From Candidatus Rifleibacteriota bacterium (lineage in GTDB: Bacteria > Muiribacteriota > Ozemobacteria > Ozemobacterales > Ozemobacteraceae), in assembly GCA_012517355.1 (NCBI GenBank), contig JAAYVD010000149.1, positions 1-45,864 on the forward strand: a stretch of DNA of 45,864 nucleotides. Reading direction: 5' to 3'. Both the position numbers and the translations under genes were made by a program. Shown one piece after another: positions 7,946 to 38,456 of the stretch. Under the pieces are notes generated by a model. It was not told the origin of the DNA, did not search any database, and worked only from the letters and a program-made list of their open reading frames with translations. Position 1 is the first letter of the stretch; the number at the start of each line of letters is the position of its first letter.

Positions 7946-7985
7946 GGCCGGCCGCGGCGGTGCTCCCGCGCCGGCCGCTCGCCGG

Positions 7986-13410: not shown

Positions 13411-13475
13411 CCGACCGACACGAGGTCGGAAGGGCTTCCCCGTTGCCGTCACGGATGGCAGCGCGAAACGCCAGG
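13411..13475 (+). repeat. Dispersed REP-like element, full copy
   Basis: Hairpin 1 CCGACC-n7-GGTCGG (13411-13429), linker AAGGGCTTCCCC, hairpin 2 GCCGTCA-CGGA-TGGCAGC (one decayed pair), then GCGAAACGCC. This is one of the clearest copies. Confidence 0.75.
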
Positions 13476-13649
13476 TTCCCACCCCGCAAAGGGGCCAGCC
13501 CTGGTCAGGCGACACCAAGGTCATGGACAAACCCGAGACGGCAGCCCGTAATGGCGCGAAACGCCCGCCGCGCGCCAGGAAAAACCCCTGCCGCCGGCGA
13601 CGGCGAAGGCCCGGGCCGGGCAGGGGGCGGTGGGGATTCCTGGTCCTGT

Positions 13650-14961: not shown

Positions 14962-15903
14962 TCACCCCCGGCGGGCGGCCAGCCACCGTTCGGCGTCGAG
15001 GGCCGCCACGCAGCCGGTGCCGGCGGCCGAGATGGCCTGACGGTAGTGGGGGTCGATGACATCGCCGCAACCGAAGACGCCCTCGACGGACGTGTAGGAA
15101 GTCGGGTGGCGCACCGCCAGGTAGCCCTTGTCGTCGAGCCGGACCTGCCCTCCCAGGAACTTCGTGTTGGGCTCGTGGCCGATGGCCATGAAGAAGCCGC
15201 GGGCCTCCAGGTCGCGGACCGCGCCGGTCTTCAGGTTCCGGATCTTCAGCCCGCGCATGACCGTGTCGCCCACGATCTCGTCGACCACCGAGTCGGTCAC
15301 CACCTCGATCTTCGGATTGGCGAAGGTCCGCTCGACCATGATGCGGCTGGCGCGGAACTCGGCGCGGCGATGGATGAGCACCACCCGGGCCGCGAACCGG
15401 GTCAGGTAGGCGGCCTCTTCCATGGCGGTGTCGCCGCCGCCGACGACGGCGATGACCTGGTTGCGGAACATGGGCAGGGCTCCGTCGCACGTGGCGCAGG
15501 CCGAGACGCCCTTCCCCCAGAAAGTCTTGGCGCTGGGAAGGTCGAGGAGGCGGGCCGAGGCGCCGGTGGCGATGATGACTGCCCGCGCCTCGATCTGCTG
15601 GGAGGAGGTGGTGAGGTGGAACACCGGGCCGCGCAGGTCGACCGCGGTCACGTCCTCGGTGAGCATGTCCGCGCCGAACCGCACGGCCTGCTCGCGCATC
15701 TGGCCGATCAGGTCCGGGCCCATGATGCCCTTGGGGAACCCGGGGAAGTTCTCCACTTCCGAGGTGGTCATCAGCTGGCCGCCGGGCTGGCCCCCCGCCA
15801 TGAATCCCTCGATGACCAGGGGCTTCAGATCGGCCCGGCTGGTGTAGACAGCCGCCGTCAGTCCGGCCGGGCCCGCCCCGACGATCACCACGTTTCTGAT
15901 CAT
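14962..15903 (-). CDS. trxB: Thioredoxin reductase
   Basis: NADPH- and FAD-dependent enzyme that keeps thioredoxin reduced in the cytoplasm. The FAD-binding motif is GAGPAGLTAAVY at the N-terminus, the redox-active pair is CATC in SACATCDGA (about residue 135), the NADPH motif is GGGDTAMEEA, and the C-terminal FAD motif is GVFGCGDV. The 313-aa length is normal. MIRNVVIVGAG is the start because GGAGG precedes it. It heads a two-gene unit with the TIGR00300 gene; no thioredoxin gene is in the window. Confidence 0.95.
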   Translation of the reverse strand: MIRNVVIVGAGPAGLTAAVYTSRADLKPLVIEGFMAGGQPGGQLMTTSEVENFPGFPKGIMGPDLIGQMREQAVRFGADMLTEDVTAVDLRGPVFHLTTSSQQIEARAVIIATGASARLLDLPSAKTFWGKGVSACATCDGALPMFRNQVIAVVGGGDTAMEEAAYLTRFAARVVLIHRRAEFRASRIMVERTFANPKIEVVTDSVVDEIVGDTVMRGLKIRNLKTGAVRDLEARGFFMAIGHEPNTKFLGGQVRLDDKGYLAVRHPTSYTSVEGVFGCGDVIDPHYRQAISAAGTGCVAALDAERWLAARRG

Positions 15904-15933
15904 TGCCTTCCTCCAGGGTGGATTGATTGGGCG

Positions 15934-15942
15934 ATTATAGCA
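15934..15942 (-). promoter_or_regulatory. Extended -10 of the trxB unit
   Basis: TGCTATAAT on the minus strand, 30 bases before the ATG: a perfect TATAAT in an extended TGn context. The -35 region has no good hexamer. A TATCAT on the plus strand at 15952-15957 could serve the divergent binding-protein gene. Confidence 0.55.
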
Positions 15943-16022
15943 CTTTTGATGTATCATGGAGGGGTGAGCCAGGCCGAGTTCCGGGGCCCGGCCAAACCTG
16001 CCAACCCGGCACCAGAGGGGAC

Positions 16023-19267: not shown

Positions 19268-19339
19268 ACCCCATGCCCGGAATGATGGACACGGACCGGG
19301 TGGCCCCTTGGCGGTGGGTGATACGGGCGGTGCCCGCCG

Positions 19340-19390
19340 CCGCCATCCGTGGCGGCAAAGGGGAAGCCCTTCCGACGTCGTGTCGGTCGG
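19340..19390 (-). repeat. Dispersed REP-like element, full copy (inverted)
   Basis: Read on the plus strand it is hairpin 2 CCGCCA-TCCG-TGGCGG (19340-19355), linker AAAGGGGAAGCCCTT, then hairpin 1 CCGACG-n7-GGTCGG (19372-19390) with one mismatch. It lies directly after the hybrid kinase gene. Confidence 0.75.
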
Positions 19391-19532: not shown

Positions 19533-19756
19533 GCAGACTTGGAATCTCCCGCGGAAACCTCCTGGCCGGGCTTCTGCTCCTGGAAATCCCCTGCATCGCG
19601 GCCATCTACCTGAACCCCCGCGTGCCCGGACGCTGCCGGGTCACCTGGCTGGTCTGCACCCTGCTGGCCGGCCCGATCGGGTTCGCGGCCTACTGGTGGC
19701 TGAAAACCCCCAGCCGGCCCGCCACACCGCCGCCCACCGCGCCCCTGGCCGCCTGA
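19526..19756 (+). CDS. Small two-TM membrane protein, 76 aa
   Basis: ATG at 19526 follows a poor ribosome binding site but overlaps the end of the 32-aa ORF. The product has two hydrophobic helices (about residues 11-29 and 41-60) and a Pro/Ala-rich tail. The helix pair and the short loop NPRVPGRCR look like a genuine small membrane protein. Its role is unknown. Confidence 0.45.
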   Translation: MLSRLGISRGNLLAGLLLLEIPCIAAIYLNPRVPGRCRVTWLVCTLLAGPIGFAAYWWLKTPSRPATPPPTAPLAA

Positions 19757-19924: not shown

Positions 19925-19953
19925 TTGTCGGACGGACCTGCTTGGGCTATGAT
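19925..19953 (+). promoter_or_regulatory. Promoter of the peptidase-exporter operon
   Basis: TTGTCG at 19925-19930, a 17-base spacer and TATGAT at 19948-19953, with CTGGAGG and the ATG at 19983 downstream. This is the only good promoter seen before the six coupled genes to 28967. Confidence 0.5.
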
Positions 19954-19982: not shown

Positions 19983-22499
19983 ATGCCCCTGCGGCCACCT
20001 GCCTTGTTCCTTCTCTTCGGCTTCTTCCTGCTGGCGACGGCCGGCGCCCTGCACGCCCAGGTGCCGGAAGCCTACCACCTGCCACCCGCCCGCATCGTCG
20101 AGATCGTCGATGCCCCCCAGCCCCCCCTGGCCGAGGTCAGCCCGCGCGGGGACAAGGTTCTGCTCGTGGAATACCGCAACCTCGTCGATATCGCCTACCT
20201 GTCGCAGCCCATGTTGCGACTGGCGGGCATGCGCATCCTGCCCAGATACAACGCCCCCCAGCGCACCTTCTTCGTGCAGTCGATGCAGATCCTGCACCTG
20301 GCGAGCCGCGGCCGGACCCACCTGCCGCTTCCCGAAGGCGCCTCGTTCGGGTATCCCGGCTGGTCGCCCGACGGAAAGCGGCTGGCCGTCGCCCGCTACG
20401 AGAAGGACGGGGCGGAGATCTGGGTGTTTGACGCCGACACCGGCGAGGGCAAGGCCGTCACCCCCCGCCGGGTCAACTCGGTGCTCCTGTCGCCCTACCA
20501 GTGGGACATCGACAGCCGCCACCTTTTCGTTCCCCTGATCCCCGACGGGCGGGGGCCGGCCCCGGCCACTCCCGAGGTGCCGGCCGGGCCGGTCATCCAG
20601 GAGACGGCGGGAGTGGTTTCGAAGGTGAGAACCTACCAGGACCTGCTGCAGACGGCCCACGACGAGGCCCTGTTCGAGCACTACGCCACGGCCGGGCTCG
20701 GCTGGGTCGACACCGAGACCGGGGCCCTGACGGTGCTGGGAAAACCCGGCCTGCTGCAGGAAGTGTCCCCTTCTCCCGACGGCCAGTATCTGCTGGTCGA
20801 CCGGATCACGCCGCCGTTTTCCCGCGTGGTGCCGGCCAACCTCTTCGCCCACGTCCTCGAACTGTGGGACCGCCAGGGGAACCGGTTGCGCACGATCGCC
20901 GAGCTGCCCGTGGCCGACCAGCTGCCCATCCAGGGCGTGCCCACCGGGGTGCGGAGCCTGCACTGGCAGCCGTTGTTCCCGCATACGCTGGCCTGGGTGG
21001 AAGCCCTCGACGGGGGCGATCCCAACACCAAGGTCCCCTTCCGTGACAAGCTGCTCGTCGCCGCCGACCCGCTGGCCTCCGACTCCGTCGAGGTGTTCCG
21101 GTTCCCGCAGCGGTTCTCGGGGATCGACTGGCTGGCCAGCCCGGGCCTTCTGCTGGCCCACGACTACGACCGCGACCGCCGGCAGGTCAGGACCTGGCTG
21201 TTTTCCACGGCCAGCCCGACCGACGCCTCGGCCGCCCGCCTGCTGTTCGACCGCAACGCCCAAGACGAGTACAACGACCCGGGCGACCCCGTCTACGTCA
21301 GGCTCCCGAGCGGGGAGTCGGTGGCGGTCATGGCCTCGGACAGCATCTTCCTGGCCGGGAAGGGGGCCACCCCCGAAGGATACCGGCCCTTCCTGCGCCG
21401 GTTCGACCTCGGCACCCTCGCCTCGACCACCCTGTTGCAGTCGGCCACCGACACCTACGAGGCGTTCATCGCCTTCGGCCGGGACGACCTCGGGTCGATC
21501 GTGACCAGGCGGGAGAGCCCCACCGAGCCGCCGAACTATTTCGTGCGCTCCCTGACCGGTGATCGGGCGGGTTCGCCCGACCGTCTCACCTCCTTCACCG
21601 ATCCCGCCCCCGAGTTCCAGAAGATCAAAAAAGACCTGTTGACCTATTCCCGCAAAGACGGCATCCCCCTCTCCGGCACCTTGTATTACCCCCTCGACTA
21701 CCAGCCGGGGAGGCGGGTTCCCGCCGTGGTCTGGGCCTACCCGCGGGAATACACGAGTTCGGCCACGGCCGGGCAGGTGCGCAACACCACCAGCCGCTAC
21801 ACCCGCATCGACAACGACTCGATCCTGTTCTTCCTGTTCCTGGGGTATGCCGTGCTCGATCGGGCCGAGATTCCCGTGGTCGGCGACCCCCTGACGGCCA
21901 ATGACACGTTCATCGAGCAGATCTCGGACGGGGCCCAGGCCGCCGTCGACAAACTGGTGGACATGGGCGTCGCCGACCGGCACCGGATCGGGGTGGCCGG
22001 TCATTCCTACGGGGCGTTCATGGTGGCCAACCTGCTCGCGCATACCGACCTGTTCGCCGCCGGCATCGCCCGCAGCGGCGCCTACAATCGCACCCTGACC
22101 CCCTTCGGCTTCCAGGGGGAACGGCGCACGTTCTGGGAGGCCCCCGAGGTCTACACCCGCCTGTCGGCCTTCACCCATGCCCACAAGATCGACGAGCCGC
22201 TGCTGATGATCCACGGCGAACTCGACAGCAACCCGGGCACCTACCCGCTGCAGAGCGAGCGCCTGTTCGCCGCCATCCGGGGGCACGGCGGCATCGCCCG
22301 GTTCGTGCTGCTTCCCTTCGAGAACCATGGTTACCAGGCCCGCGAGTCGGTCCTGCACGTGCTGTACGAAATGTTCGCCTGGTTCGACCGGTACGTGAAG
22401 AACCGGCCGGCTCCGACGCCCGGGGCCCCCTCCCCCGCCTCCGGGACCACGCCCACCGGTCCCGCCGCGGCCACCGGCCCGGCGGCCGACGGGAAATGA
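19983..22499 (+). CDS. Secreted S9-family serine peptidase (glutamyl endopeptidase-like)
   Basis: Signal peptide (cleavage near LHA-QV, residue 22) and 838 aa. The N-terminal two thirds are a beta-propeller-like gate (GYPGWSPDGKRLAVARY, SPSPDGQYLLVDRI). The C-terminal alpha/beta-hydrolase has the nucleophile S675 in GHSYGAF, D748 in HGELDSNPG and H782 in ENHGYQARES. Overall order and the opening PPARIVEIVDAPQPPLAEVSP resemble the S9D group (glutamyl endopeptidase, CGEP), more than DPP-IV. It overlaps the TolC gene by an ATGA, so a periplasmic peptidase is made together with an exporter. Substrate unknown; a role in trimming or clearing the exported molecule is inference. Confidence 0.88.
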   Translation: MPLRPPALFLLFGFFLLATAGALHAQVPEAYHLPPARIVEIVDAPQPPLAEVSPRGDKVLLVEYRNLVDIAYLSQPMLRLAGMRILPRYNAPQRTFFVQSMQILHLASRGRTHLPLPEGASFGYPGWSPDGKRLAVARYEKDGAEIWVFDADTGEGKAVTPRRVNSVLLSPYQWDIDSRHLFVPLIPDGRGPAPATPEVPAGPVIQETAGVVSKVRTYQDLLQTAHDEALFEHYATAGLGWVDTETGALTVLGKPGLLQEVSPSPDGQYLLVDRITPPFSRVVPANLFAHVLELWDRQGNRLRTIAELPVADQLPIQGVPTGVRSLHWQPLFPHTLAWVEALDGGDPNTKVPFRDKLLVAADPLASDSVEVFRFPQRFSGIDWLASPGLLLAHDYDRDRRQVRTWLFSTASPTDASAARLLFDRNAQDEYNDPGDPVYVRLPSGESVAVMASDSIFLAGKGATPEGYRPFLRRFDLGTLASTTLLQSATDTYEAFIAFGRDDLGSIVTRRESPTEPPNYFVRSLTGDRAGSPDRLTSFTDPAPEFQKIKKDLLTYSRKDGIPLSGTLYYPLDYQPGRRVPAVVWAYPREYTSSATAGQVRNTTSRYTRIDNDSILFFLFLGYAVLDRAEIPVVGDPLTANDTFIEQISDGAQAAVDKLVDMGVADRHRIGVAGHSYGAFMVANLLAHTDLFAAGIARSGAYNRTLTPFGFQGERRTFWEAPEVYTRLSAFTHAHKIDEPLLMIHGELDSNPGTYPLQSERLFAAIRGHGGIARFVLLPFENHGYQARESVLHVLYEMFAWFDRYVKNRPAPTPGAPSPASGTTPTGPAAATGPAADGK

Positions 22500-24097
22500 G
22501 GCACCGTCCCCGCCCCGGACCCGGCCAGGGATTCCATCTTTCCCCCCTGGAGAAGACCGGCCAACGAAGGCTCCCCGTGGCCTGGGTCATTGCCCTGGCC
22601 GCCTTCGGATGGCTGTGCCTCGCCGGCGCGGCCCCCGCGGAGGAGGCGGTGCCCCCCGGAACCACGCCTGCCGCCGCCGTCGCGACCCCCGCCGCCCCCC
22701 CGCCCCCCGAAGCCGCCTTTCCCATCGCCGCCACCCTTCCCCACCCCGCTTCGCCCGCGGTGGAACTGACGGTCGAAGACTGCGTCCGGATGGGGGTGGC
22801 CGCCAACCTCACCCTCCTGCAGAAAGGGCTGGAACGAGATGCCAAGGCGTTCGACATCGGGATCGCCCGGCGGGTGTTCATTCCCGAGGTCACCGCCGCC
22901 GTCACCGAGAGCCGCGACGCGACCCGCACCCGCGTCTACGGGCAAGGCTTTTCGGTGACCGGGGTGCAGGGCACGAAAGTGGCTCTCCGGAACGAGTATC
23001 GCGATCCCGAGGCCGGCCGCAGCCGCGACGAGAGGACGCAGGTGTTCGCCCTCACCCAGCCCCTGATGAAGAATTTCGGCCGGGCGGTGACGGGGTACGC
23101 CATCGACGTGGCCCGCATCGACTACGAGGCGGGTGTCGAGCGGTTCCGGTCCGACCTGAACGCGTTCATCTACGACCTGGTCACGCTCTGCCTCGATCTC
23201 AGTTTCGCGCGGAAGAACCTGGCCATCCAGGATGCCGCCTGCCAACGGGCCCGGCAGCAGTTCGAGGACACCCGGCACGACATCGGGCTGGGGGCCATCG
23301 CCGAGCGCGAGATCTTCCTGGTCGAGGAGAACCTGGTCGGGTTCGAGATCAAGCGGCAGAATGCCCGGCAGGAGATCGCCATCCTCGAGCTGCAACTGCG
23401 GCAGGCCCTGAACTTCGACCCTTCCCTCGACGAGGGGATCACCGCCGCCGATGCCCTGGGCAGCGAGGGGGCGGCCCTTGGCGAGGCCGCCGGCGCGGGG
23501 CCTTCCCCCGCCTCCTTTGCCGACATCATGGCCGTGGCGCGCCAGGAGAGCCCTGACCTGCGACTCGACCGTCTGCTCGAAAAGAGGTCGCTGACCGCCC
23601 TCGAGCGGGAACGGCTCCAGTATCACCCGCGGCTCGATTTCGCCCTCGACTGGCGGTGGCGGGAAGGAGGCACCTCCCGGGCCAACGCCTACACGGTCGG
23701 GTTGGAATACGAAGTGCCCCTGTCTCGGAGCGCCGACCGGGCGGCCGTCGACCAGGCCCGCCTCGAGCGCGAGATCCGGCGGCTGGCGGTGCAGGACACC
23801 GAGACCCGCCTGGCCTACCGGCTGCGCGAGGTGTTGCTCCAGATCGGGCACCTGCGCACCGTCCTTGCCGGGAAGCGCCGCTCGGTCGAGCTATCCCGCA
23901 AGACCCTCGATGCGGAGAACGAGAAGTACCGGAACGGCTATTCCACCCTGGCGGACGTGGTGCGGTTCCAGCGCGAGCTCGAATCGGCCCAGATCGACGA
24001 GCTGTCGACCCGGACCAACCTCGAAAAGGCCTGCTGGCGGCGGTTCCTGCTCGAGGGCACGTTGCATCGGAAGTTCGCCATCACCATCGACCGCTGA
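22496..24097 (+). CDS. TolC-family outer-membrane channel
   Basis: Outer-membrane efflux protein of 533 aa. After the signal sequence (VAWVIALAAFGWLCLAGA) there are two homologous helical repeats: LTVEDCVRMGVAANLTLLQ near residue 90 opens the first, and the second ends near YRNGYSTLADVVRFQRELESAQ, the characteristic TolC 'K/R-Y-x-x-G-x-x-x-x-x-D-V' motif. ATGA overlap at 22496 gives one start; an in-frame GTG at 22577 would give a more typical signal peptide and is a real alternative. It forms the exit duct for the ABC pump encoded next. Confidence 0.9.
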   Translation: MRHRPRPGPGQGFHLSPLEKTGQRRLPVAWVIALAAFGWLCLAGAAPAEEAVPPGTTPAAAVATPAAPPPPEAAFPIAATLPHPASPAVELTVEDCVRMGVAANLTLLQKGLERDAKAFDIGIARRVFIPEVTAAVTESRDATRTRVYGQGFSVTGVQGTKVALRNEYRDPEAGRSRDERTQVFALTQPLMKNFGRAVTGYAIDVARIDYEAGVERFRSDLNAFIYDLVTLCLDLSFARKNLAIQDAACQRARQQFEDTRHDIGLGAIAEREIFLVEENLVGFEIKRQNARQEIAILELQLRQALNFDPSLDEGITAADALGSEGAALGEAAGAGPSPASFADIMAVARQESPDLRLDRLLEKRSLTALERERLQYHPRLDFALDWRWREGGTSRANAYTVGLEYEVPLSRSADRAAVDQARLEREIRRLAVQDTETRLAYRLREVLLQIGHLRTVLAGKRRSVELSRKTLDAENEKYRNGYSTLADVVRFQRELESAQIDELSTRTNLEKACWRRFLLEGTLHRKFAITIDR

Positions 24098-24101
24098 CGA
24101 C

Positions 24102-24764
24102 ATGATCAGGCTCGAGAACATCCGCAAGGACTACCGGCTCGGCATCGTCGAGGTGCCCGTCCTGCGCGGCGTCTCGCTGCACATCGCCGAAGGGGAGTTC
24201 GTCGCGGTGATGGGGGCGTCGGGCTCGGGGAAATCGACGCTGCTCAACATCCTGGGCTGCCTCGACACCCCCTCTTCCGGTCGCTACCTGCTCGAAGGCA
24301 CCCCGATCGACTCGCTGACCGACAACGCCCTGTCGGAGGTGCGGGCCCGGTCGATCGGGTTCGTCTTCCAGCGGTTCCACCTGATCAAATTCCTGTCGGT
24401 TCTCGACAACACCAAGATGCCGATGGAGTTTTTGAACGTGAAGGATGCCGAGGCCGACACCGCCGCCCGGCGCTGGCTGGGCCGGGTCCGAATGGAGCAC
24501 CGGCTCGACCACTTCCCCCACCAGTTGAGCGGCGGCGAGCGCCAGCGGGTGGCCATCGCGCGGGCCCTGATCAAGACCCCGAAGATCATCCTGGCCGACG
24601 AGCCGACCGGGAACCTCGACGAGAAGGTCGGCCACGAGATCATCCAGTTGTTCCGCGACCTCAACCGGGAACTGCGGGTCACCGTCATCATGGTGACCCA
24701 TGCCCCCGACATCGCCGCGGTGGCCGACCGCACCATCCACATCCGGGACGGCCTGATCCAATGA
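24102..24764 (+). CDS. MacB/LolD-type ABC transporter ATPase
   Basis: Cytoplasmic nucleotide-binding subunit, 220 aa. Walker A is GASGSGKST, the Q-loop region VFQRFHLI, the signature LSGGERQRVAIARAL, Walker B IILADEPTGNLD and the H-loop VTHAPD; all key residues are intact. The 'EPTGNLD' Walker B ending is typical of the MacB/LolD/FtsE group. It follows TolC by 4 bases and overlaps the adaptor gene by an ATGA, so it powers the permease at 26161. Confidence 0.95.
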   Translation: MIRLENIRKDYRLGIVEVPVLRGVSLHIAEGEFVAVMGASGSGKSTLLNILGCLDTPSSGRYLLEGTPIDSLTDNALSEVRARSIGFVFQRFHLIKFLSVLDNTKMPMEFLNVKDAEADTAARRWLGRVRMEHRLDHFPHQLSGGERQRVAIARALIKTPKIILADEPTGNLDEKVGHEIIQLFRDLNRELRVTVIMVTHAPDIAAVADRTIHIRDGLIQ

Positions 24765-26164
24765 GATGTGCCTTCACCATGGTGGCCATCCTCCTGGTGG
24801 TCGTCTGGAGCTTCCTCCCCCAGCCCACCAAAGGTCAGGAGACCGGGGGACAGCCCGGTCCGTCCGCCACCCGACCACGGATCCGGAGAGAGCAGCCGCG
24901 AGGCGCTGACGACCCAGGCCGTCCCCGACGGGAACGAGGCAAACGCGCCAACCGCGACAGGGCCGAAGGCGGCCCCACATCCGGGGAAGGCGCAGGAAAC
25001 GAGCCCCCCCCGGAAGTTCCACCCACCGGTGACGCAGGCACCGACAGCCTGAAGGTCCCCGAGGGAGCGACTCCCGAAACCGGCGTTGAGGAGGATGACG
25101 AACCCGGGGCGACGGCCAGTCCCCGGATTGGAATGGCAGGGGCCGACACGCCGATGCCCCGGGTCGGAGGGGCGACGCCCACGACGGAGCCCGCGGGAAG
25201 CGGGCGGCGGGGGGGAGCAGCCTCCCGCCCGGCCGGAAAGGGGCGCGAGATCCGGTATTACGACGGCCGGGTGGTACCGAAGGATTTCCTTGCCCTGTGC
25301 GCCCCCCAGAACACCCTCAAGCTGCCGTTCTGGCGGTCGGAGTCGAGTTCGATCCGGCTGAGCACGATCCTGCCCGAGTCCCGGCCGGTGGCGTCGGGCG
25401 AGGTGGTGGCCACCTTCCAGTTCGCCGACCTGGCGGCGCGCGAGGAACTGACCCAGCAGGTCAACCGGCTGACCGCGAAGCGCGACGAGTCCCTGCTGGG
25501 GCTGCGCAAGAACCTGGTCGACCTGGAGGCGAAGCTGGAAAAGGCGCGCCTGAAGGAACGGGCGGCCGCGATCGACCTCGGGCGCAAGAGCACCCTCTCG
25601 CAGCAGAAGGCGGCCCTGCTCGACATCGAGTTCCGGCTGGCCACCCACGAGCGCACCTCCCTCGAACACAAACTGGCCGCCGCCCAAGACAACCTGCGGC
25701 GCACCGCGGCCATTCTCGACGCCAACATCCGGTCCTGGAACAACCACTTCGTCTCGTTCGACCGCACCCGCGACCGGTATGCGGTGAAGGCTCCGGCCGC
25801 CGGCACCCTTTTCTATCCGACCATCGACAAGCAGAAGCGGAAGATCATCCCCGGCGACGAGATCAACTCCGGCCTGCATTTCCTGTCGGTCGTCACTTCC
25901 GACCGCGTCGAGATCCAGTTCTTCGTGCCCGAGGCCGACCTCGGCCTGGTGCGGCCCGGCGGCCGGGTGCGGGTGGCCTTCGACGGGCGCGAGCGACCGG
26001 GCGTGATCACGGGCGTGGGGTTCTTCCCGCAGCGGGTGGGTGACGTGCAGGGCACCTTCGCGCTGCCGAACGCCTGGGAGAAGTGTTTTGTCGTGCGGGC
26101 CGACCTCGAAGGGGCGGCCACCCTCGGCACGAACAACCTGGTGCGGGTGAGGCTGCGACCATGA
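24761..26164 (+). CDS. Periplasmic adaptor (HlyD/MacA-like), first of two
   Basis: An N-terminal hydrophobic segment (MVAILLVVVWSFLPQ) is followed by an unusually long low-complexity linker (residues 25-165, rich in Gly, Pro, Glu, Arg). The folded part starts near REIRYYDGRVVP. A coiled-coil hairpin (REELTQQVNRLTAKRDESL to HKLAAAQDNLRRTAAIL) sits between lipoyl-type halves, closing with YAVKAPAAGTLFYP. The beta-barrel region follows (VEIQFFVPEADLGLVRPGGRVRV). It overlaps the ATPase upstream and the permease downstream by ATGA. It probably bridges the permease and TolC. Confidence 0.82.
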   Translation: MRCAFTMVAILLVVVWSFLPQPTKGQETGGQPGPSATRPRIRREQPRGADDPGRPRRERGKRANRDRAEGGPTSGEGAGNEPPPEVPPTGDAGTDSLKVPEGATPETGVEEDDEPGATASPRIGMAGADTPMPRVGGATPTTEPAGSGRRGGAASRPAGKGREIRYYDGRVVPKDFLALCAPQNTLKLPFWRSESSSIRLSTILPESRPVASGEVVATFQFADLAAREELTQQVNRLTAKRDESLLGLRKNLVDLEAKLEKARLKERAAAIDLGRKSTLSQQKAALLDIEFRLATHERTSLEHKLAAAQDNLRRTAAILDANIRSWNNHFVSFDRTRDRYAVKAPAAGTLFYPTIDKQKRKIIPGDEINSGLHFLSVVTSDRVEIQFFVPEADLGLVRPGGRVRVAFDGRERPGVITGVGFFPQRVGDVQGTFALPNAWEKCFVVRADLEGAATLGTNNLVRVRLRP

Positions 26165-27471
26165 AGGTCTCGTCGCTGATCAAGGGCAGCCTGGCCTCGT
26201 TCCGGATGAACCTGTTCCGGACCTTCCTCGCGCTGCTGGGCATCATCTTTGGGGTGTCCTCGGTGATCGCCATGATCACCATCGGCGAGGGGGCCCAGCG
26301 CCGCATCCTCGACAACATCAACGCCCTGGGCGCCGACCTGGTGCACATCCAGGAGGGGAACCTGGAGCGCGGCCAGTTGTCACAGTTCATCAACGATTCG
26401 CAGGGCCTGTCGCTGCGCGACGTGCGGGCCCTGCGGGCGGTTTTGCCGATGGCGGGCCGCGACCTGGCGTATTTCGCCAAGCTGAAGGTGAAGGTGACCA
26501 GCCTGCCGGTGCAGGCCGGGGAGCTGAACGTGTTCGGCGTCAGCGGCCGGTTCCTGCCGATGAACCAGCTCCGGTTGTCGGCCGGACGGTCGTTCCACCC
26601 CGACGATTTCCGGGTGTTCGCGCCGGTGGCGATCGTCAGCCGCGACCTGGCCGAACAGGCCTGGGAGACGCCCGAGGCCGGCCTGGGGAAGGTCTTCCGG
26701 CTGGAGGAGCGGTATTTCCGGGTGGTCGGCGTGTTCGAGCGCCGGACCCTCGCCGGCGCGGCCCGGGAAGCCGGCCGCGAGGGCCGGCCGGGGGGGAGCC
26801 GCGGGGGAAGGGGAGGCGGCAGGCGGGGCCGGGGCATGCCGCGCGATTTCGGCATCTACGAGCGGTCGGTGCTGCTGCCCTACGCCACCGCCCGCGAGAC
26901 CCTCGCCGCCGAGCGGGTCTATTCCCCTCTCGACAAGATCCTGCTGCAGTGTCGGAGCCTCGACGAGACCAGCCGGATGAAGGAGGCGGCCGACCGCGTG
27001 CTGGCCGTGACCCACAACGGGGTCCGCGATTACCGCACGTTCTCGCCCCTCGAGCTGCTGGAGCAGCAGCAGTCGACGCAGGAGATCTTCAACATCGTTC
27101 TGCTCAGCATCGCTTCGATCTCGCTGCTGGTGGGCGGGATCGGCATCATGAACATCATGCTGGCCAACGTGCTCGAGCGCCGGGTCGAGATCGGCATCCG
27201 GCGCGCGCTCGGGGCCAAGCGCCGGCACATCGTGTTCCAGTTCCTGTTCGAGTCGGTCACCATCTGCCTGATCGGCGGCGGGCTGGGCATCCTGCTCGGC
27301 CTGGGGATCGGCCTGTGCATCATGCAGTTCACGAAGATCCCGGTGGCTTTCACCCTCAAGCCCATCCTCATCTCGTTCGGCATCTCGTTTTCGGTCGGGG
27401 TCTTCTTCGGCATCATGCCCGCCCGCGAGGCCGCCGCCCTCAACCCGGTGGAGGCCCTGCACGACGAATGA
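26161..27471 (+). CDS. MacB-type ABC permease
   Basis: Inner-membrane subunit, 436 aa, with the MacB layout: TM1 at residues about 20-42 (LFRTFLALLGIIFGVSSVIAM), a large periplasmic domain (50-300), then three TM helices with FNIVLLSIASISLLVGGIGIMNIM and the conserved ERRVEIGIRRALGAKRRHI cytoplasmic loop. Closing AREAAALNPVEALHDE is the family's usual end. A Gly/Arg-rich stretch (residues about 199-224) interrupts the periplasmic domain and is not expected in the family. The start overlaps the adaptor stop (ATGA). The ATPase is a separate polypeptide at 24102. Confidence 0.93.
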   Translation: MKVSSLIKGSLASFRMNLFRTFLALLGIIFGVSSVIAMITIGEGAQRRILDNINALGADLVHIQEGNLERGQLSQFINDSQGLSLRDVRALRAVLPMAGRDLAYFAKLKVKVTSLPVQAGELNVFGVSGRFLPMNQLRLSAGRSFHPDDFRVFAPVAIVSRDLAEQAWETPEAGLGKVFRLEERYFRVVGVFERRTLAGAAREAGREGRPGGSRGGRGGGRRGRGMPRDFGIYERSVLLPYATARETLAAERVYSPLDKILLQCRSLDETSRMKEAADRVLAVTHNGVRDYRTFSPLELLEQQQSTQEIFNIVLLSIASISLLVGGIGIMNIMLANVLERRVEIGIRRALGAKRRHIVFQFLFESVTICLIGGGLGILLGLGIGLCIMQFTKIPVAFTLKPILISFGISFSVGVFFGIMPAREAAALNPVEALHDE

Positions 27472-27497
27472 GTCCCCCCTACCCTGGAGGTTCCCTG

Positions 27498-28967
27498 ATG
27501 AAAAAGACCCCGGCATCCGCCATTTCCCTGACCCGCCCGCCGCGCGGTCGGCCATTACCCCTCGCCATTCCGGAAGGCGCCGCGTACCGTTCGGGTCGTG
27601 CCATGCCAGGGAGCCACCCCGGGCCCGACCGACACGAGGTCGGCCATGCACCCCTGCCCCTTCGGCGAGCAGGGCGAAGCGCCCATACCGCGTATCGCCA
27701 GGGAGCGATCGTTCTTCTCCTGGTGCTGGCCGAGCTGGCGGCGGCGCTTCCCCGGCTGACCGGCCAGGACTGGAGCGGTGGGGAGGACCGGGTCCTGGCC
27801 CCCGTCCGGCAGGGCGACCTCGTCGAGACCTTCGTCTTCCACGGCGAGATGGAAGCGTGCGACAGCGTCCAGGTGCACGCCCCCGAGTTGCAGGAAACGC
27901 GGCTGGTCACGATCCGGTCGGTGCTCGAGGACGGCACGCCGGTGCAGGCAAGCGACACCGTGGTCGAACTGGAGGACGGCGACTTCCAGCGGGCCCTCGA
28001 GGGCGCGCGGGACGAGGTCGAGGTCGCCCAGGCCGAACTGGAGAAAGTGCGTTTCGACCTGCAGAACGACGGGATCGACCTCGAACTGAACGTGAAGCGT
28101 CGCGAGCTCGAACTCGAAAAGGCCCGGGCCATGGTGATCGAGGACGCCATCGTGTTCTCGAAGATCGAGCTGCAGAAGGCGAAACTGGGGGTCGAGCAGG
28201 CGGAGATGGAGCTGAAATACGCCCAGGCGGCCCTGGGCGAGTTCCGCCAGAAACGCGAGGCCACCCTCAAGGTCAAAGAACTGCAGCTGCAGCAGGCCCG
28301 CCGCAAGATCGACATCCAGCAGGAGAACATCTCCAGATCGGTGATCCGTGCCCCCGGCGCGGGGATCGTCTACAAGCCGTTCATCCGCCTGAACAACGAG
28401 ATGGGGCGCATCGAGGCGGGAAAAGTGGTGCGGTGCGGCGACAAGCTGCTCGAGTTGCCCAACCTCGACCGGTTCCGGGGGGTGTCGTACGTGCCGACCG
28501 TCGAGTACCCCTACCTGACGCCGGGCAGCCCCGCCACGCTGACCCTGACCATCGCTCCCGACCGCGTCTTCCCGGCCGTCCTCGAGAGCAAGGAACCCTA
28601 CCCCATCAGCCGGAACGAGCGCCTGGGAAGGAACGACCCCGAGGGGTTCCTGAAGGAATACAAGGTCTCCTTCGCCCTGTCGGGAACCGACCCGGTGTTC
28701 CGGCCCGGGCTCACGTTCAAGGCCGAGATCGCCACCGTCATCGCCACCGGGTGCACCTTCCTGCCCCGTGCCGCCCTGGCCCGCCCCAACGGCGATCGGG
28801 CAACGGTCTGGATGCAGGCGCCGGGCGGGGCGGTGGAGCGGCAGATCCGCACCGGCCGCAAGGGGGTGGCCTTCATCGAGGTGCTGGAAGGCCTTCGTCC
28901 CGGCGACCAGGTCTGCCTCGACTTCCCTCTCGAAGAAGAAGGAGAAGATGAGGACGAGGACCTCTGA
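27498..28967 (+). CDS. Periplasmic adaptor (HlyD-like), second, with a repeat in its N-terminal tail
   Basis: ATG at 27498 has CCTGGAGG just upstream, 26 bases after the permease stop. The signal anchor (GAIVLLLVLAELAAALP) begins only near residue 70; the 68 residues before it are basic and include PDRHEVG, read from hairpin 1 of the dispersed element (27625-27643). After the membrane helix come lipoyl-type strands (GEMEACDSVQVHAPEL), a coiled-coil hairpin (residues about 155-275; EVEVAQAELEKVRFDL to LQQARRKIDIQQENI), IRAPGAGIVYKP and a beta-barrel part. The very acidic tail is EEEGEDEDEDL. Two different adaptors in one operon suggest a mixed adaptor ring or two alternative pumps. Confidence 0.83.
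   Translation: MKKTPASAISLTRPPRGRPLPLAIPEGAAYRSGRAMPGSHPGPDRHEVGHAPLPLRRAGRSAHTAYRQGAIVLLLVLAELAAALPRLTGQDWSGGEDRVLAPVRQGDLVETFVFHGEMEACDSVQVHAPELQETRLVTIRSVLEDGTPVQASDTVVELEDGDFQRALEGARDEVEVAQAELEKVRFDLQNDGIDLELNVKRRELELEKARAMVIEDAIVFSKIELQKAKLGVEQAEMELKYAQAALGEFRQKREATLKVKELQLQQARRKIDIQQENISRSVIRAPGAGIVYKPFIRLNNEMGRIEAGKVVRCGDKLLELPNLDRFRGVSYVPTVEYPYLTPGSPATLTLTIAPDRVFPAVLESKEPYPISRNERLGRNDPEGFLKEYKVSFALSGTDPVFRPGLTFKAEIATVIATGCTFLPRAALARPNGDRATVWMQAPGGAVERQIRTGRKGVAFIEVLEGLRPGDQVCLDFPLEEEGEDEDEDL
27625..27643 (+). repeat. Dispersed REP-like element, hairpin 1, inside the second adaptor gene
   Basis: CCGACC-GACACGA-GGTCGG, identical in sequence to hairpin 1 of the 13411 copy. It is followed by CATGCACCCCTGCCCCTTCGG and GGGCGAAGCGCCC, which may be a changed second half. 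Confidence 0.7.
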
Positions 28968-29533: not shown

Positions 29534-30820
29534 ATGAACACCCGACGGTTGTGTTTGCTGCTGTTCCTGGCGGTGATCCTGTTGTGGCCTGCGAACCTGG
29601 CCGGCGCCCAGTCCGGGTTCGAGTTCTACTACCAGGCCATCGAGGAGGTCCAGGAAGAGAAACCCTCGACCGGCGACTCCTGGTGGGACAAAGCCAAGAA
29701 TTTCGGCAAGAAGATCCTCAACTACGGGAAGATGGCCTGGAGCCAGGCCGAGATGCGCTTCTTCCCCGGCGAAGGAACCAAGTGGGTCCGGTCGGTCCAG
29801 AACCCCAACATCGCCTACAAGGTCAAGCGGGTGAAGGTGACCACCGAAGCCGAACTGCTCAAGGCCATGGGGGTCAAGTCGGAGTCTGAACTGGCCGACG
29901 GCCAGAAGGCGATGCTCGAGGCTTTCCGCGCCTCGTCGATGCAGATGATCAAGGACCGCCAGCCATATTCCTACCGGAAGGACCCGGTGCGCGTGCTGCT
30001 GACCGACACCACGGGCTTCGACGACGTGAAGACGGTCGAAAAGGATTTCTGGCCGATGTCGTTCGGGTCGATCCAGATGAGTTCGAATCTGTACAACTAT
30101 TCCGGGTCGGGCGAGCAGGCCCGTTCCACCTTCCTGCACGAGTTCTGCCACACCATGGACCGCACGGTTCCCGCCGGGGTCGCCTACGAGGCCGCCCGCA
30201 CCTGGATCAAGGACGGCGGGCCGCTCTACGGCAAGGACAACATGCACCACATCAACGAGCACACCTATCCCCGGGTGGCCTACCTGGAAGGTTGGGCGAT
30301 CTTCAACGAGATGCTCGAATACCCGCGGGAAGCCGAGGGCGTTCGCAACGCCATCAAGACCATCGACTTCGAGAAGGACGGCGGCAGCTATGACCATGTC
30401 GCCGCCACCGACGCCAAGGTGACCGGTCAGCAGCTGATGGAGACCGAGGGCGTGGTGGCCATGGTCCTGTACCGGTTGGCAACCGAAGGAAAGGGCGGCC
30501 GGAAGGCGATCTTCGAGGCATTCCAGGCCAGCAACAAGTATCTGCACGAACCGAAGGATTTCCTCCAGGCGTTCGCCAAGGCGAACCCCGACGATGTGGC
30601 GCTCGCGGTGCGGATCCTCGACGAGGAGACCCACGGCAAGCTGTCCGACGCCGAGCTCAAGAACCTCCTGGGCGCGACCCCCGAGGTGCTGGCCGCCCTG
30701 GCCGACCGCGGCAAGTCGACCCTTCCCGCCGCGCCGGCCGACGAGGCCGGAACCACGGCCGAGGGCAAGCCCGTCCAGGTCGGCAGCCCCGACGACACGA
30801 GCCCGTTCGCCGACCGCTGA
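29534..30820 (+). CDS. Secreted zincin-like putative metallopeptidase, 428 aa
   Basis: Signal peptide (cleavage near AGA-QS, residue 26). HEFCH at residues 202-206 is an HExxH zinc motif, and E252 in LEGWAIFNEM is a likely third ligand. Before it lies HHINEHTYPRVAY, matching HYVDEILPNANTAW at the same relative place in the protein at 5416-6804; the two are probably distant paralogues. An N-terminal helix-rich part (residues 30-130) and a C-terminal low-complexity end (395-428) flank the core. CGAGGTG precedes the ATG. It is a single gene between the two exporter systems. Activity and substrate are inferred or unknown. Confidence 0.72.
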   Translation: MNTRRLCLLLFLAVILLWPANLAGAQSGFEFYYQAIEEVQEEKPSTGDSWWDKAKNFGKKILNYGKMAWSQAEMRFFPGEGTKWVRSVQNPNIAYKVKRVKVTTEAELLKAMGVKSESELADGQKAMLEAFRASSMQMIKDRQPYSYRKDPVRVLLTDTTGFDDVKTVEKDFWPMSFGSIQMSSNLYNYSGSGEQARSTFLHEFCHTMDRTVPAGVAYEAARTWIKDGGPLYGKDNMHHINEHTYPRVAYLEGWAIFNEMLEYPREAEGVRNAIKTIDFEKDGGSYDHVAATDAKVTGQQLMETEGVVAMVLYRLATEGKGGRKAIFEAFQASNKYLHEPKDFLQAFAKANPDDVALAVRILDEETHGKLSDAELKNLLGATPEVLAALADRGKSTLPAAPADEAGTTAEGKPVQVGSPDDTSPFADR

Positions 30821-31109: not shown

Positions 31110-32984
31110 ATGAGCCAACCCGCCGAACCCACCCGCCCCTCCCCCACCCCGCCCCCCGGAGACGATTTCCGGCCCCGGGCGCGGGAGCTGTTCTGGCGGT
31201 TCATCGGAGCCTACAAGAAGGAGTTCGGGCTGGCGGTGCTGGCTCTGGCCATCGTCGACGCGATGGACGTGCTGCCCCCGCTCATCATCAAGGGAGCCAT
31301 CGACGTCCTCGAGAAGGGCGAAGGGTCGCGGATGCTCTGGATCCTGGCCGGCGCCTACCTGGCGGCCTCGCTCCTGCAGGCCGTTTTCCGCTACTACTGG
31401 CGGAAGTATTTCCTCGGCACCAGCCACGTGGTGGTCTACGACCTGCGCAAACAGCTCTACGAGCACCTGCAGACCCTGTCGTTCGGGTTCTTCAACCGCA
31501 ACAAGACGGGGGAACTGATGTCGCGGCTGACCAACGACATCGACGAGATCCGCATGATGTTCGGCATCGGGCTGCTGCTGATGATGGACGCGCTGTTCTA
31601 CTTCCTGTCGGTGCCGTTCATCATGCTCTGGCTGTCGCCGCGCCTGGCGCTGTATATCCTGCTGCCCCTGCCCATCGTGCCGATCTTCGTGACCAAGGTG
31701 GGCGGCTACATCCACGACCTGTCGAAGATCGTGCAGGAGCGGGTGGCCGACCTGTCGGCGCGGGCCCAGGAGAACTTCTCGGGCATCCGCATCGTCAAGG
31801 GGTTCGCCCGGGAGGAGGCGCAGATCGAGGGGTTCAACCGCACCAGCCGCCGGCTGGTCGGGGAGAAGCTGACCCTGGCGAAGGTCGAGGCGGGGTTCCA
31901 CCCCACCCTCGAGCTGATCGTCGGCATCGGGGCCTTCTTCCTGATCCTGGCCGGGGGGCAGCGAGTGCTGGCCGGGGAGATCTCGATCGGCTCGTTCGTG
32001 GCCTTCCAGGCCTACCTGCTGAAGATGGTCTGGCCGATGACCGCGGTAGGAATGTGCATCAACATCCACCAGCGGGGCATGGCCTCGCTGGGGCGCGCCG
32101 CCGAGGTCCTCGACGAGCGGCCGGAGATCGCCTCCCCCCCCGATCCGGCCGAGCCGCCCGCCGGTGGCCTGGCCGGCCACCTGGAGGTGCGCGGCCTGTC
32201 GTTCACCTACCCCGGGGCGGCCGCCCCCAGCCTGCACGAGGTTTCCTTCACCCTGCCGGCGGGGCACACCCTCGGCCTCACCGGGCCGGTGGGGTGCGGC
32301 AAGTCGACGCTGCTGCACCTGCTGCTGCGGCTGCTGGAACCGCCTCCCGGCACGGTCTTCCTCGACGGCACCGACATACGCCGGTATGCCCTGCCCACCC
32401 TGCGCCGGGCGTTCGGGTACGTGCCGCAGGACACCTTCCTGTTTTCCGAGACCATCCGCGACAACATCGGGTTCGGGCTGCCCGCGGCCGGCGACGGCCC
32501 CGGCGACGCCGACGGGCGGGCCGCGCGGGTCCAGGCCTGCGCGCGGGCGGCCCAGATCGACGGCGAGATCGCCGACCTCGCGCAGGGCTACGACTCGCTG
32601 CTGGGGGAACGCGGGGTCAACCTGTCGGGTGGCCAGAAACAGCGGGTGGCGATCGCCCGCGCCCTGGCCCTCGACCCGCGCATCCTGCTGCTCGACGATG
32701 CCACCAGCGCGGTCGACACCGACACCGAGGAGCGCATCCTGGCCGCCCTGCGGGAGATCCTGCGGGACCGGACCGCCATCCTCGTCTCGCACCGGCTGGT
32801 GACGGTGCAGAACGCCGACCTGATCCTGTTTCTGGAGGCCGGCCGGATCCTCGAGCAGGGCACCCACGCCGACCTGCTGGCCCGGGGCGGACGGTATGCC
32901 TGGCTCTGGGAGAAGCAGCGCCTGAAGCGGGAACTGGAGACCGAGGGGCCGGGCCTGCCCGCCGCGCCGCCGGTGGCCACATGA
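31110..32984 (+). CDS. ABC exporter half-transporter with degenerate Walker B
   Basis: A type IV ABC exporter subunit: six TM helices (residues about 35-320; FNRNKTGELMSRLTNDIDEIR in the second cytoplasmic loop) fused to a nucleotide-binding domain. Walker A is GPVGCGKST, the signature LSGGQKQRVAIARAL is canonical, but Walker B ends LLLDDATSAVD: the catalytic Glu is Asp. The H-loop is VSHRL. The stop overlaps the next gene by ATGA, and that partner has complementary defects, so they form a heterodimer of the TM287/288, BmrCD or TmrAB kind. The ATG follows a predicted promoter but no strong ribosome binding site. Substrate unknown; lipids, drugs and peptides are known in the family. Confidence 0.92.
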   Translation: MSQPAEPTRPSPTPPPGDDFRPRARELFWRFIGAYKKEFGLAVLALAIVDAMDVLPPLIIKGAIDVLEKGEGSRMLWILAGAYLAASLLQAVFRYYWRKYFLGTSHVVVYDLRKQLYEHLQTLSFGFFNRNKTGELMSRLTNDIDEIRMMFGIGLLLMMDALFYFLSVPFIMLWLSPRLALYILLPLPIVPIFVTKVGGYIHDLSKIVQERVADLSARAQENFSGIRIVKGFAREEAQIEGFNRTSRRLVGEKLTLAKVEAGFHPTLELIVGIGAFFLILAGGQRVLAGEISIGSFVAFQAYLLKMVWPMTAVGMCINIHQRGMASLGRAAEVLDERPEIASPPDPAEPPAGGLAGHLEVRGLSFTYPGAAAPSLHEVSFTLPAGHTLGLTGPVGCGKSTLLHLLLRLLEPPPGTVFLDGTDIRRYALPTLRRAFGYVPQDTFLFSETIRDNIGFGLPAAGDGPGDADGRAARVQACARAAQIDGEIADLAQGYDSLLGERGVNLSGGQKQRVAIARALALDPRILLLDDATSAVDTDTEERILAALREILRDRTAILVSHRLVTVQNADLILFLEAGRILEQGTHADLLARGGRYAWLWEKQRLKRELETEGPGLPAAPPVAT

Positions 32985-34783
32985 GCCAGTCCTTTTTCGC
33001 CGACGACGAGGTGGTGGGCTCGTTCTACGACGCCCGGCTGGTGCGGCGGCTGCTCGGCTACATCCGGCGCTACGCGTGGCTGGCGGCGCTCGCCCTCGCC
33101 CTGGTGCTGGCCGGCATGGGGCTGTTTTTGGTCAACCCCTACCTGCTCGGCCGGATCGTCGACCTGGGGATCCGGGGCCGCGACCCCGACACGATCTGGC
33201 GTCTCGGGCTCCTGTACGGGGCGATCGAGGTGATGATCTTTTTGGTGTCATACGCGCAGAACTACCTGTTGCAGTACATCGGGCAGCACGTCATGTTCGA
33301 CCTGCGGGCCGGATTCTTCGCCCACCTGCAGCGCATGCCCCTTCCCTTCTTCGACCGCAACCCGGTGGGCCGGCTGGTGACGCGCGTCACCAACGACATC
33401 GCCACCCTGGCCGAACTGTTCAGTTCGGGCATCGTGATGGTGATCGGCGACCTGTTCCTCATCGCGGGCATCGCCGTCTCGCTGGTGCTGCTGCATCCGG
33501 GGTTGGGGCTGGCGACCCTGTCGACCGTGCCGCTGCTGGTGGTGGCGGCGTGGTTCTTCCAGACCCGCATCCGGCAGGCCTTCCGGGAGGTGCGGGCGCG
33601 CATCGCCCGGGTCAACGCCTCCCTGTCGGAAAACATTTCGGGCATGCGGGTCATCCAGATCTTCCGGCAGGAGGAAGGACGGGCGGCCAAGTTCGACGGC
33701 CTGAATGCCAGCCACCGCGATGCCCAGGTGCAGTCGGTCTTCTACCATTCCCTGTTCACCCCGGTCATCACCGTCATCAACGCCCTGTGCATCATCGTGA
33801 TCCTGCTGGTCGGGGGGCACATGGTGCAGGGGGGCACCCTCACCCTCGGGCTGCTGGTGAGCTTTTTGACCTATGCCCAGAACTTCTTCCACCCCATCCG
33901 CAACATCAGCGAGAAGGTGACCATCTTCCAGAGCGCCATGGCCTCGGCCGAGCGCGTCTTCTCGCTGATGGACGAACCCGAGGAGACCGGCCTGCGTGAG
34001 GGGGAACCGCTGCCCACGGTGCAGGGGGAGATCCGGTTCGAGGGGGTGCGGTTCGCCTACATCCCCGGCCGCGAGGTCCTGAGCGACATCTCCTTCACGG
34101 TCGCCCCGGGTCAGTCAGTGGCCATCGTCGGCCACACGGGGGCAGGGAAGACGACGATCACGGCCCTGCTCGACCGCATGTATGACCTGGCGGCCGGGCG
34201 CATCCTGCTCGACGGCCGGGACGTGACGACGATCGCCAAGGAGGAGTTGCGGCGCCGCATCGCGGTCATCCACCAGGACGTGTTCATCTTCGCCGACACG
34301 GTGCGGGAGAACATCCGCCTGTGGAACCCGGCGATCGCACCCGAGCGGGTGCGGCAGATCGCGCGCGAGATCGGCGCCGACGGGTTCATCACCGCCCTGG
34401 CCCAGGGCTACGACACCGAACTGTACGAGCGGGGGGCCAACCTGTCGACCGGCCAGCGCCAGCTGATCTCGTTCGCCCGCGCGCTGTGCGCCGACCCGAC
34501 CATCCTGGTGCTCGACGAGGCCACCAGCTCGATCGACTCGGAGAGCGAGAAGATCATCCAGGAGGCGATCAAGACCCTGACGCGGGGCCGCACCTGCCTG
34601 ATCATCGCGCACCGCCTGTCGACGATCCGGCACTGCGACCGCATCCTCGTGCTGCACCAGGGCCGGCTGGTCGAGTCGGGCTCACACCAGGAACTCCTGG
34701 CGAAGCAGGGCTTCTACCACAAGTTGTACGAACTCCAGTTCCACGACGGGCCCGCCGCCAACCGACCGGTTCCTTCCCACTGA
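32981..34783 (+). CDS. ABC exporter half-transporter with catalytic Walker B
   Basis: Partner of the preceding gene, 600 aa: six TM helices (about residues 30-310; PFFDRNPVGRLVTRVTNDIATL in the coupling loop) plus the nucleotide-binding domain. Walker A is GHTGAGKTT, Walker B ILVLDEATSSID with the catalytic Glu, H-loop IAHRLSTIRHCD. The signature is LSTGQRQ, with Thr replacing the first Gly of LSGGQ. Thus the site built from this subunit's Walker motifs and the partner's LSGGQ is canonical and the other site is degenerate. Coupled by ATGA. Long in-frame codons upstream of 32981 are antisense-like readthrough of the first gene and not part of it. Confidence 0.94.
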   Translation: MSQSFFADDEVVGSFYDARLVRRLLGYIRRYAWLAALALALVLAGMGLFLVNPYLLGRIVDLGIRGRDPDTIWRLGLLYGAIEVMIFLVSYAQNYLLQYIGQHVMFDLRAGFFAHLQRMPLPFFDRNPVGRLVTRVTNDIATLAELFSSGIVMVIGDLFLIAGIAVSLVLLHPGLGLATLSTVPLLVVAAWFFQTRIRQAFREVRARIARVNASLSENISGMRVIQIFRQEEGRAAKFDGLNASHRDAQVQSVFYHSLFTPVITVINALCIIVILLVGGHMVQGGTLTLGLLVSFLTYAQNFFHPIRNISEKVTIFQSAMASAERVFSLMDEPEETGLREGEPLPTVQGEIRFEGVRFAYIPGREVLSDISFTVAPGQSVAIVGHTGAGKTTITALLDRMYDLAAGRILLDGRDVTTIAKEELRRRIAVIHQDVFIFADTVRENIRLWNPAIAPERVRQIAREIGADGFITALAQGYDTELYERGANLSTGQRQLISFARALCADPTILVLDEATSSIDSESEKIIQEAIKTLTRGRTCLIIAHRLSTIRHCDRILVLHQGRLVESGSHQELLAKQGFYHKLYELQFHDGPAANRPVPSH

Positions 34784-38326: not shown

Positions 38327-38400
38327 CCCGGGAATGGCCGCCTCGGCGGGAATCGACCGCGGGGGTCGGCAGCCGGCGGGCGAGGGCGTCCCCCAGGCGA

Positions 38401-38456
38401 GGCGCGAAACGGGCGTTTCGCGCCGCCACCCGGGACGGCAAGGGGGACGGCACGAG
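38401..38456 (-). repeat. Dispersed REP-like element, diverged, with a long palindrome
   Basis: GGCGCGAAAC-GGGC-GTTTCGCGCC (38401-38424) is a perfect 10-bp hairpin; it is followed by CGCCACCCGGGACGGCAAGGGG, the diverged hairpin 2 and linker in inverted orientation. The arms CGAAAC/GTTTCG match the outer end of the copies at 7864 and 13411. Confidence 0.55.

What the first reader, a model, noticed from the sequence alone, without database searches (positions are those of the whole stretch)
19983..28967. Six-gene operon joining an S9 peptidase to a MacB-TolC exporter with two different adaptors
Peptidase, TolC, ATPase, adaptor 1, permease and adaptor 2 are joined by ATGA overlaps at three junctions and gaps of 4 and 26 bases elsewhere. 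A full set of inner-membrane, periplasmic and outer-membrane parts in one operon is already unusual for MacB systems. Two dissimilar adaptors (one with a 140-residue disordered linker, one with a 68-residue N-tail and acidic C-tail) and a co-made secreted peptidase suggest a dedicated export and processing route for a peptide or lipopeptide. No substrate gene is evident.
Basis: partly seen in the sequence, partly recalled or inferred. Interest (0 to 1): 0.65.

Follow-up and report, generated by a model that had tools for sequence, protein, structure and literature searches.

The report
Two-adaptor MacB-type exporter; peptidase incidental
A bacterium carries a five-gene pump that spans both cell membranes and uses two unequal connector proteins; the pump is shared across its phylum, while the peptidase gene beside it is only a local neighbour in this one genome.

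Summary
The six genes are real, on one strand, with the junctions described. They split into two unlinked parts.

The peptidase (19983-22499) is an S9D, chloroplast-glutamyl-endopeptidase-like enzyme. Most family-level relatives have it, but always away from the exporter. It is at its own ancestral locus: the flanking reductase and half-ABC pair accompany it in relatives. A largely collinear congener has neither peptidase nor exporter at this spot.

The exporter (tolC-ATPase-adaptor1-permease-adaptor2) is a genuine conserved unit: adaptor 1 occurs in 10 of 40 phylum genomes, always with adaptor 2, in the same order.

The conserved asymmetry lies elsewhere: adaptor 1 lacks the membrane-proximal domain and adaptor 2 has it. 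Similar short-plus-full adaptor sets occur next to MacB-type permeases in Shewanella, Bacteroidota and Acidobacteriota, apparently evolved separately.

Best reading: a split MacB-type tripartite exporter with a heteromeric adaptor ring; substrate unknown.

The parts
19983..22499 (+). S9D peptidase (chloroplast glutamyl endopeptidase-like), putative signal peptide; neighbour, not part of the conserved exporter
   Evidence: Pfam Peptidase_S9 E 3e-24; PDB 10eq E 8e-172 over residues 27-830; unlinked in relatives
22496..24097 (+). TolC-type outer-membrane channel; residues 1-27 not in homologues, signal-peptide-like stretch begins about 22577
   Evidence: Pfam OEP E 7e-34; same place in G003, G005, G007, G014, G026, G037
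24102..24764 (+). ABC ATPase, separate chain
   Evidence: Pfam ABC_tran E 4e-33; 59-67% identity in the six relatives with the five-gene order
24761..26164 (+). Adaptor 1: signal-peptide-like N-terminus, lipoyl, 50-residue-per-arm hairpin, beta-barrel, no membrane-proximal domain
   Evidence: AlphaFold model pLDDT 72; Foldseek MacA/EmrA
24830..25231 (+). Adaptor 1 linker, 134 codons, GC3 0.71, absent from relatives
   Evidence: single copy in genome
25433..25744 (+). Adaptor 1 alpha-helical hairpin
   Evidence: model helices 69-118 and 125-172 of window:25229-26161
26161..27471 (+). MacB-type permease (MacB_PCD + FtsX), no fused ATPase
   Evidence: PDB MacB 5gko E 6e-45; 51-56% identity in G003/G005/G007/G014/G026/G037
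27498..28967 (+). Adaptor 2: TM anchor, lipoyl, 59-residue-per-arm hairpin, beta-barrel, membrane-proximal domain, acidic tail
   Evidence: AlphaFold pLDDT 79; Foldseek MacA E 2e-22
27625..27705 (-). Copy of 83-bp dispersed REP-like repeat inside the adaptor-2 N-tail
   Evidence: nhmmer E 4e-6 in the window; genome copies
27978..28334 (+). Adaptor 2 alpha-helical hairpin
   Evidence: model helices 161-219 and 222-279
28713..28916 (+). Adaptor 2 membrane-proximal domain (missing in adaptor 1)
   Evidence: strands 406-473; alignment
19925..19953 (+). Promoter-like site before the peptidase
   Evidence: consensus scan, 2 found against 0.6 expected
14965..15957 (-). Pyridine-nucleotide-disulphide reductase; marker of the peptidase's ancestral neighbourhood
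   Evidence: 62-66% identical near the peptidase in 6 relatives
31110..34783 (+). Heterodimeric half-ABC exporter pair; marker of the peptidase's ancestral neighbourhood
   Evidence: near the peptidase in G009, G011, G012, G017; 81-83% in congeners

Best explanation
A conserved five-gene, split MacB-type (type VII ABC) tripartite exporter. The ATPase and permease form the MacB equivalent. Adaptor 2, which has hairpin, lipoyl, beta-barrel and membrane-proximal (MP) domains, contacts the permease and couples its ATPase. Adaptor 1, with hairpin, lipoyl and beta-barrel but no MP domain, alternates with adaptor 2 in a mixed ring and helps build the conduit to the co-encoded TolC. Substrate is taken from the periplasm and expelled; its identity is unknown. 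Shown: gene order, conservation, domain content. Inferred: mixed ring, division of labour, periplasmic uptake. The S9D peptidase upstream is at its own ancestral locus, and the exporter came to lie behind it only in this lineage; they may share a transcript without sharing a function.
For: The order tolC-abc-ad1-perm-ad2 is identical in six relatives from three families, and abc-ad1-perm-ad2 in three more. Adaptor 1 is in 10 of 40 phylum genomes, each time with adaptor 2. Adaptor 1 ends at the beta-barrel in all ten, while adaptor 2 continues into an MP domain. Both fold-match MacA. In the hairpin-tip register of the RLS motif (PMC3391258), adaptor 2 mostly keeps K/R-aliphatic-S (S in 8 of 10); adaptor 1 keeps the leucine in 8 of 10 and the serine in 5 of 10, without the arginine. 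Short-plus-full adaptor sets recur beside MacB-type permeases in other phyla and seem to have arisen separately. Peptidase unlinked.
Against: No experiment or complex model shows both adaptors in one ring. The f3-family relatives have no local TolC. The adaptor-1 model has moderate confidence (pLDDT 72) from only seven sequences. The adaptor-1 tip lacks the arginine of the RLS motif.
Confidence: 0.65

Rival explanations
1. The two adaptors do not share a ring: each forms its own homomeric ring with the same permease (alternative pumps), or adaptor 1 is a modulator of adaptor 2 rather than a conduit part, somewhat like YknW for YknX.
For: Adaptor 1 and adaptor 2 are distantly related and on separate clades. 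Adaptor 1 lacks the domain that contacts the permease in MacA (PMC11559062 for that domain's role). YknW modulates the adaptor of a MacB-type pump (PMC5985334).
Against: Adaptor 1 keeps lipoyl, hairpin and beta-barrel, the ring-forming and channel-docking parts. The two genes co-occur in 10 of 10 genomes with fixed order and coupled translation.
Confidence: 0.22
2. One reading: a dedicated export and processing route in which the peptidase trims a peptide or lipopeptide that the pump exports.
For: Peptidase and tolC overlap by ATGA with no terminator between; a secreted S9D endopeptidase could act in the periplasm.
Against: The peptidase is never next to the exporter in relatives and each occurs without the other; its usual neighbours are a reductase and a half-ABC pair; no conserved small ORF.
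Confidence: 0.08
3. Two adaptors of unequal hairpin length (about 50 and 59 residues per arm) form stacked or extended rings that lengthen the conduit, as a single long EmrA-type adaptor does.
For: Different predicted hairpin lengths; EmrA also lacks the MP domain (PMC4158417, abstract seen).
Against: The length difference is small; no known tripartite pump stacks adaptor rings (own knowledge).
Confidence: 0.05

Closest known systems
MacAB-TolC (E. coli; type VII ABC tripartite pump)
   Same: MacB_PCD+FtsX permease with best PDB matches MacB, MacA-like adaptor 2, TolC-type channel
   Different: ATPase is a separate gene; two adaptors, one without MP domain; TolC in the operon
LitOPAI of Legionella pneumophila (PMC11559062)
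   Same: Split ATPase and permease, adaptor and outer-membrane channel in one cluster
   Different: One adaptor; order differs; whether substrates correspond is unknown
TriABC-OpmH of Pseudomonas aeruginosa (PMC13328181, PMC4338810)
   Same: Two dissimilar adaptors, thought to have different roles in one pump
   Different: RND transporter, not ABC; resemblance in design, not membership
Desulfitobacterium DSY0927 (PMC4338810)
   Same: ABC-type transporter whose adaptor is a fusion of two different adaptor types
   Different: Fused in one chain, discussed among Gram-positive systems; not examined here
Multi-adaptor MacB-type operons of Shewanella, Psychrobium, Proteiniphilum, Acidobacteriota (loci L051, L066, L070, L078, L113)
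   Same: Two or three adaptors beside a MacB-type permease, one often ending before the MP domain
   Different: Adaptors in tandem rather than flanking the permease; short adaptors on different branches
Chloroplast glutamyl endopeptidase, S9D (PMC12871690; PDB 10eq)
   Same: Full-length match to the window peptidase, E 8e-172
   Different: Bacterial, with a putative signal peptide and a short private C-tail

Membership tests
MacB-type (type VII) ABC exporter | Permease with MacB periplasmic core and FtsX domain | tested here: met
   Pfam MacB_PCD E 3e-27 and FtsX E 7e-22; MacB structures E 6e-45
MacB-type (type VII) ABC exporter | Cognate ABC ATPase | tested here: met
   Separate adjacent gene, ABC_tran E 4e-33
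MacB proper (MacAB-TolC) | ATPase fused to the N-terminus of the permease | tested here: not met
   Two genes, 24102-24764 and 26161-27471
[quoted passage not shown]
   Adaptor 2 meets it; adaptor 1 does not, as it lacks the membrane-proximal domain
TolC-dependent tripartite pump | Outer-membrane channel gene with the transporter | tested here: met
   OEP E 7e-34 and same position in six relatives; absent locally in f3 relatives
TriABC-type two-adaptor RND pump | RND transporter | tested here: not met
   The transporter is ABC type
TriABC-type two-adaptor RND pump | Both adaptors required in one complex | not testable with these tools
   Needs deletion and purification
S9D glutamyl endopeptidase | Full-length S9D architecture | tested here: met
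   phmmer residues 27-830 to PDB 10eq
S9D glutamyl endopeptidase | Cleavage after glutamate | not testable with these tools
   Enzyme assay needed
Dedicated peptide export and processing operon | Peptidase conserved next to the exporter | tested here: not met
   Unlinked in G003, G005, G007, G014; no match in G026

The most novel reading that the evidence does not exclude
Multi-adaptor MacB-type exporters are a widespread, undescribed class in which one adaptor has repeatedly and independently lost its membrane-proximal domain, giving asymmetric rings where one subunit type drives the ATPase and the other only builds the tunnel.
Probability: 0.35. Interest if true: 0.6.

Novelty: new variant of a known kind. 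Interest (0 to 1): 0.4.

Why it matters
Why tripartite pumps need six adaptors, and whether the ring positions do different jobs, is open; TriABC is the main natural test case and it is an RND pump. A MacB-type pump in which nature has stripped the MP domain from one of two adaptors makes the division of labour directly testable with an ATPase assay. It also shows that the peptidase link, attractive from one sequence, dissolves on comparison.

Tried and rejected
Peptidase as a functional partner: rejected on relatives. Small substrate ORFs within 1.2 kb of the module in 11 loci: no shared ORF. Biosynthetic genes around multi-adaptor loci L051, L053, L055, L061, L106, L129: none obvious in the start of each predicted protein, not searched by profile. 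Known RNA families in the window: none. PDB match of adaptor 1 by sequence: none, only by fold. Adaptor-1 linker as a dispersed repeat: no second copy. Tandem second repeat unit at 27536-27622: alignment score no better than the best of 500 shuffles, so not claimed. Recent acquisition shown by GC content: no difference. The permease tree groups the window with G008 (same family) at 98/98, so no sign of transfer from outside the phylum. Literature searches for ABC pumps with two adaptors found only the DSY0927 fusion and RND cases in the held papers; most subscription papers are not covered.
Full report
WHAT IS THERE. Pfam identifies a prolyl-oligopeptidase-family peptidase, an outer-membrane efflux protein, an ABC ATPase, a HlyD-type adaptor, a MacB_PCD+FtsX permease and a second HlyD-type adaptor. 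The window is a whole contig (C49) of a 7.1 Mb, 184-contig genome. One promoter-like site precedes the peptidase and no convincing terminator separates the genes, so one transcript is possible.

THE PEPTIDASE IS NOT PART OF THE CONSERVED SYSTEM. Its nearest solved relative is the plant chloroplast glutamyl endopeptidase, family S9D (PDB 10eq, E 8e-172; PMC12871690). Orthologs at 51-58% identity occur in most family-level relatives, including 13 genomes with no adaptor-1 ortholog, and where both exist they are on different contigs: G003 C98 vs C135, G005 C76 vs C56, G007 C33 vs C13, G014 C106 vs C116. G026 (97% complete) has the exporter but no peptidase match. In relatives the peptidase lies near a pyridine-nucleotide-disulphide reductase (six loci) and a heterodimeric half-ABC pair (four loci). 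The same two markers flank the window locus at 14965-15957 and 31110-34783. In congener G001 a contig is largely collinear with the window from about 1.2 kb to 42 kb, but between the small ORF at 19596-19701 and the ORF at 29534 it holds one 2113-residue ORF in place of peptidase plus exporter. In congener G002 the peptidase start appears at the same position, cut by a contig end, and no exporter was found in that genome. So the peptidase is at its old locus, and the exporter came to lie behind it in this lineage. The first ATGA overlap joins two private tails (peptidase residues 810-838, TolC residues 1-27).

THE EXPORTER IS A CONSERVED MODULE. tolC-abc-ad1-perm-ad2 occurs in the same order in G003, G005, G007, G014, G026 and G037, and abc-ad1-perm-ad2 without a local TolC in G025, G032 and G039. 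A profile of adaptor 1 finds orthologs in 10 of 40 phylum genomes, each with adaptor 2; G008 shows permease and adaptor 2 on a contig that begins inside the permease. ATGA or 8-base overlaps at the junctions are common in the relatives. No neighbour gene or small ORF is consistently shared between these loci.

WHAT IS SPECIAL ABOUT THE ADAPTORS. The 134-residue linker of adaptor 1 is absent from all relatives, has GC3 0.71 against 0.92 in the body (P about 3e-11) and is single copy. The adaptor-2 N-tail has GC3 0.69 and includes an 83-bp repeat (27625-27705) that is dispersed through this genome: at least 45 scored copies, about 430 first-look candidates, none in 386 kb of relatives' loci. In several relatives adaptor 2 starts within the end of the permease gene, so the repeat lies where the genes probably once overlapped. 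The acidic tail varies. The conserved difference is in the domains: adaptor 1 ends at the beta-barrel in all ten orthologs, while adaptor 2 goes on into a membrane-proximal domain. Both models match MacA by fold. At the hairpin tip, aligned to the RLS motif RxxxLxxxxxxS (PMC3391258), adaptor 2 mostly shows K/R, V/I/L and S (S in 8 of 10), and adaptor 1 shows no R but often L (8 of 10) and S (5 of 10).

HOW COMMON THE DESIGN IS. Among the 80 best loci of a genome-collection scan with the permease, 14 have two or three adaptors with the permease (one of them the G039 record itself). In eight of the other 13 one adaptor's match stops before the MP domain: Shewanella (two), Psychrobium, Porphyromonadaceae, Proteiniphilum, Duganella, Lysobacterales, Acidobacteriota. 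A quick tree of 49 adaptors puts adaptor 1, the Shewanella/Psychrobium short adaptors, the Bacteroidota short adaptors and the Acidobacteriota one on different branches (the six short adaptors outside this phylum need three changes). The sample was chosen by permease similarity, and the tree is quick and has long branches, so independent loss is likely, not proven.

MECHANISM. In MacAB-TolC the hairpin contacts the channel, the lipoyl domain makes the ring, and beta-barrel plus MP domain contact the permease (summarised in PMC11559062). In TriABC-OpmH two adaptors are described as dividing the work, one stabilising the outer-membrane contact and one activating the pump (PMC13328181). By that logic adaptor 2 should be the activator and adaptor 1 the structural partner in a mixed ring. 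This is inference; no complex was modelled. Substrate uptake from the periplasm is assumed from the MacB class.

KNOWN OR NEW. All-in-one clusters with split ATPase and permease are known (LitOPAI, PMC11559062; VarACDEF, PMC5595328), so that part is ordinary. Two adaptors with an ABC transporter are, in the papers I could find, mentioned only as the fused DSY0927 protein (PMC4338810). I therefore call this a new variant of a known kind.

Noticed in passing
window 7864-7949, 13411-13496, 19303-19390, 38390-38446, 27625-27705 (weaker 5245-5273, 8779-8826): 83-bp REP-like repeat, consensus with a GGCGCGAAACGGGCGTTTCGCGCC hairpin; dispersed through the genome, sometimes in tandem at 75-87 bp spacing; not seen in relatives' loci.
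   Followed up: partly
window 27498-27707: Repeat-containing, low-GC3 DNA lies in frame at the start of the adaptor-2 ORF; if translated, a repeat element has become protein, as reported for Rickettsia palindromic elements (own knowledge).
   Followed up: partly
L266/L267 (G001:C43:15552-21893): One 2113-residue ORF at the syntenic spot in a congener; reads like two sensor plus class III cyclase units fused (by eye from motifs, no profile search).
   Followed up: no
window 29534-30820: Secreted-looking protein with an HEFCHTMD (HExxH) motif and no Pfam match; 70% identical ortholog at the same locus in G001.
   Followed up: partly
window 15927-19267: Putative solute-binding-like ORF and hybrid histidine kinase between reductase and peptidase, without a match at the syntenic place in G001 or on the G002 contig; the locus looks variable.
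   Followed up: partly
L191, L184, L198: In G007, G014 and G024 the S9D peptidase adjoins or lies near a ZnuABC-like metal uptake operon instead (profile-checked in L191 only).
   Followed up: partly
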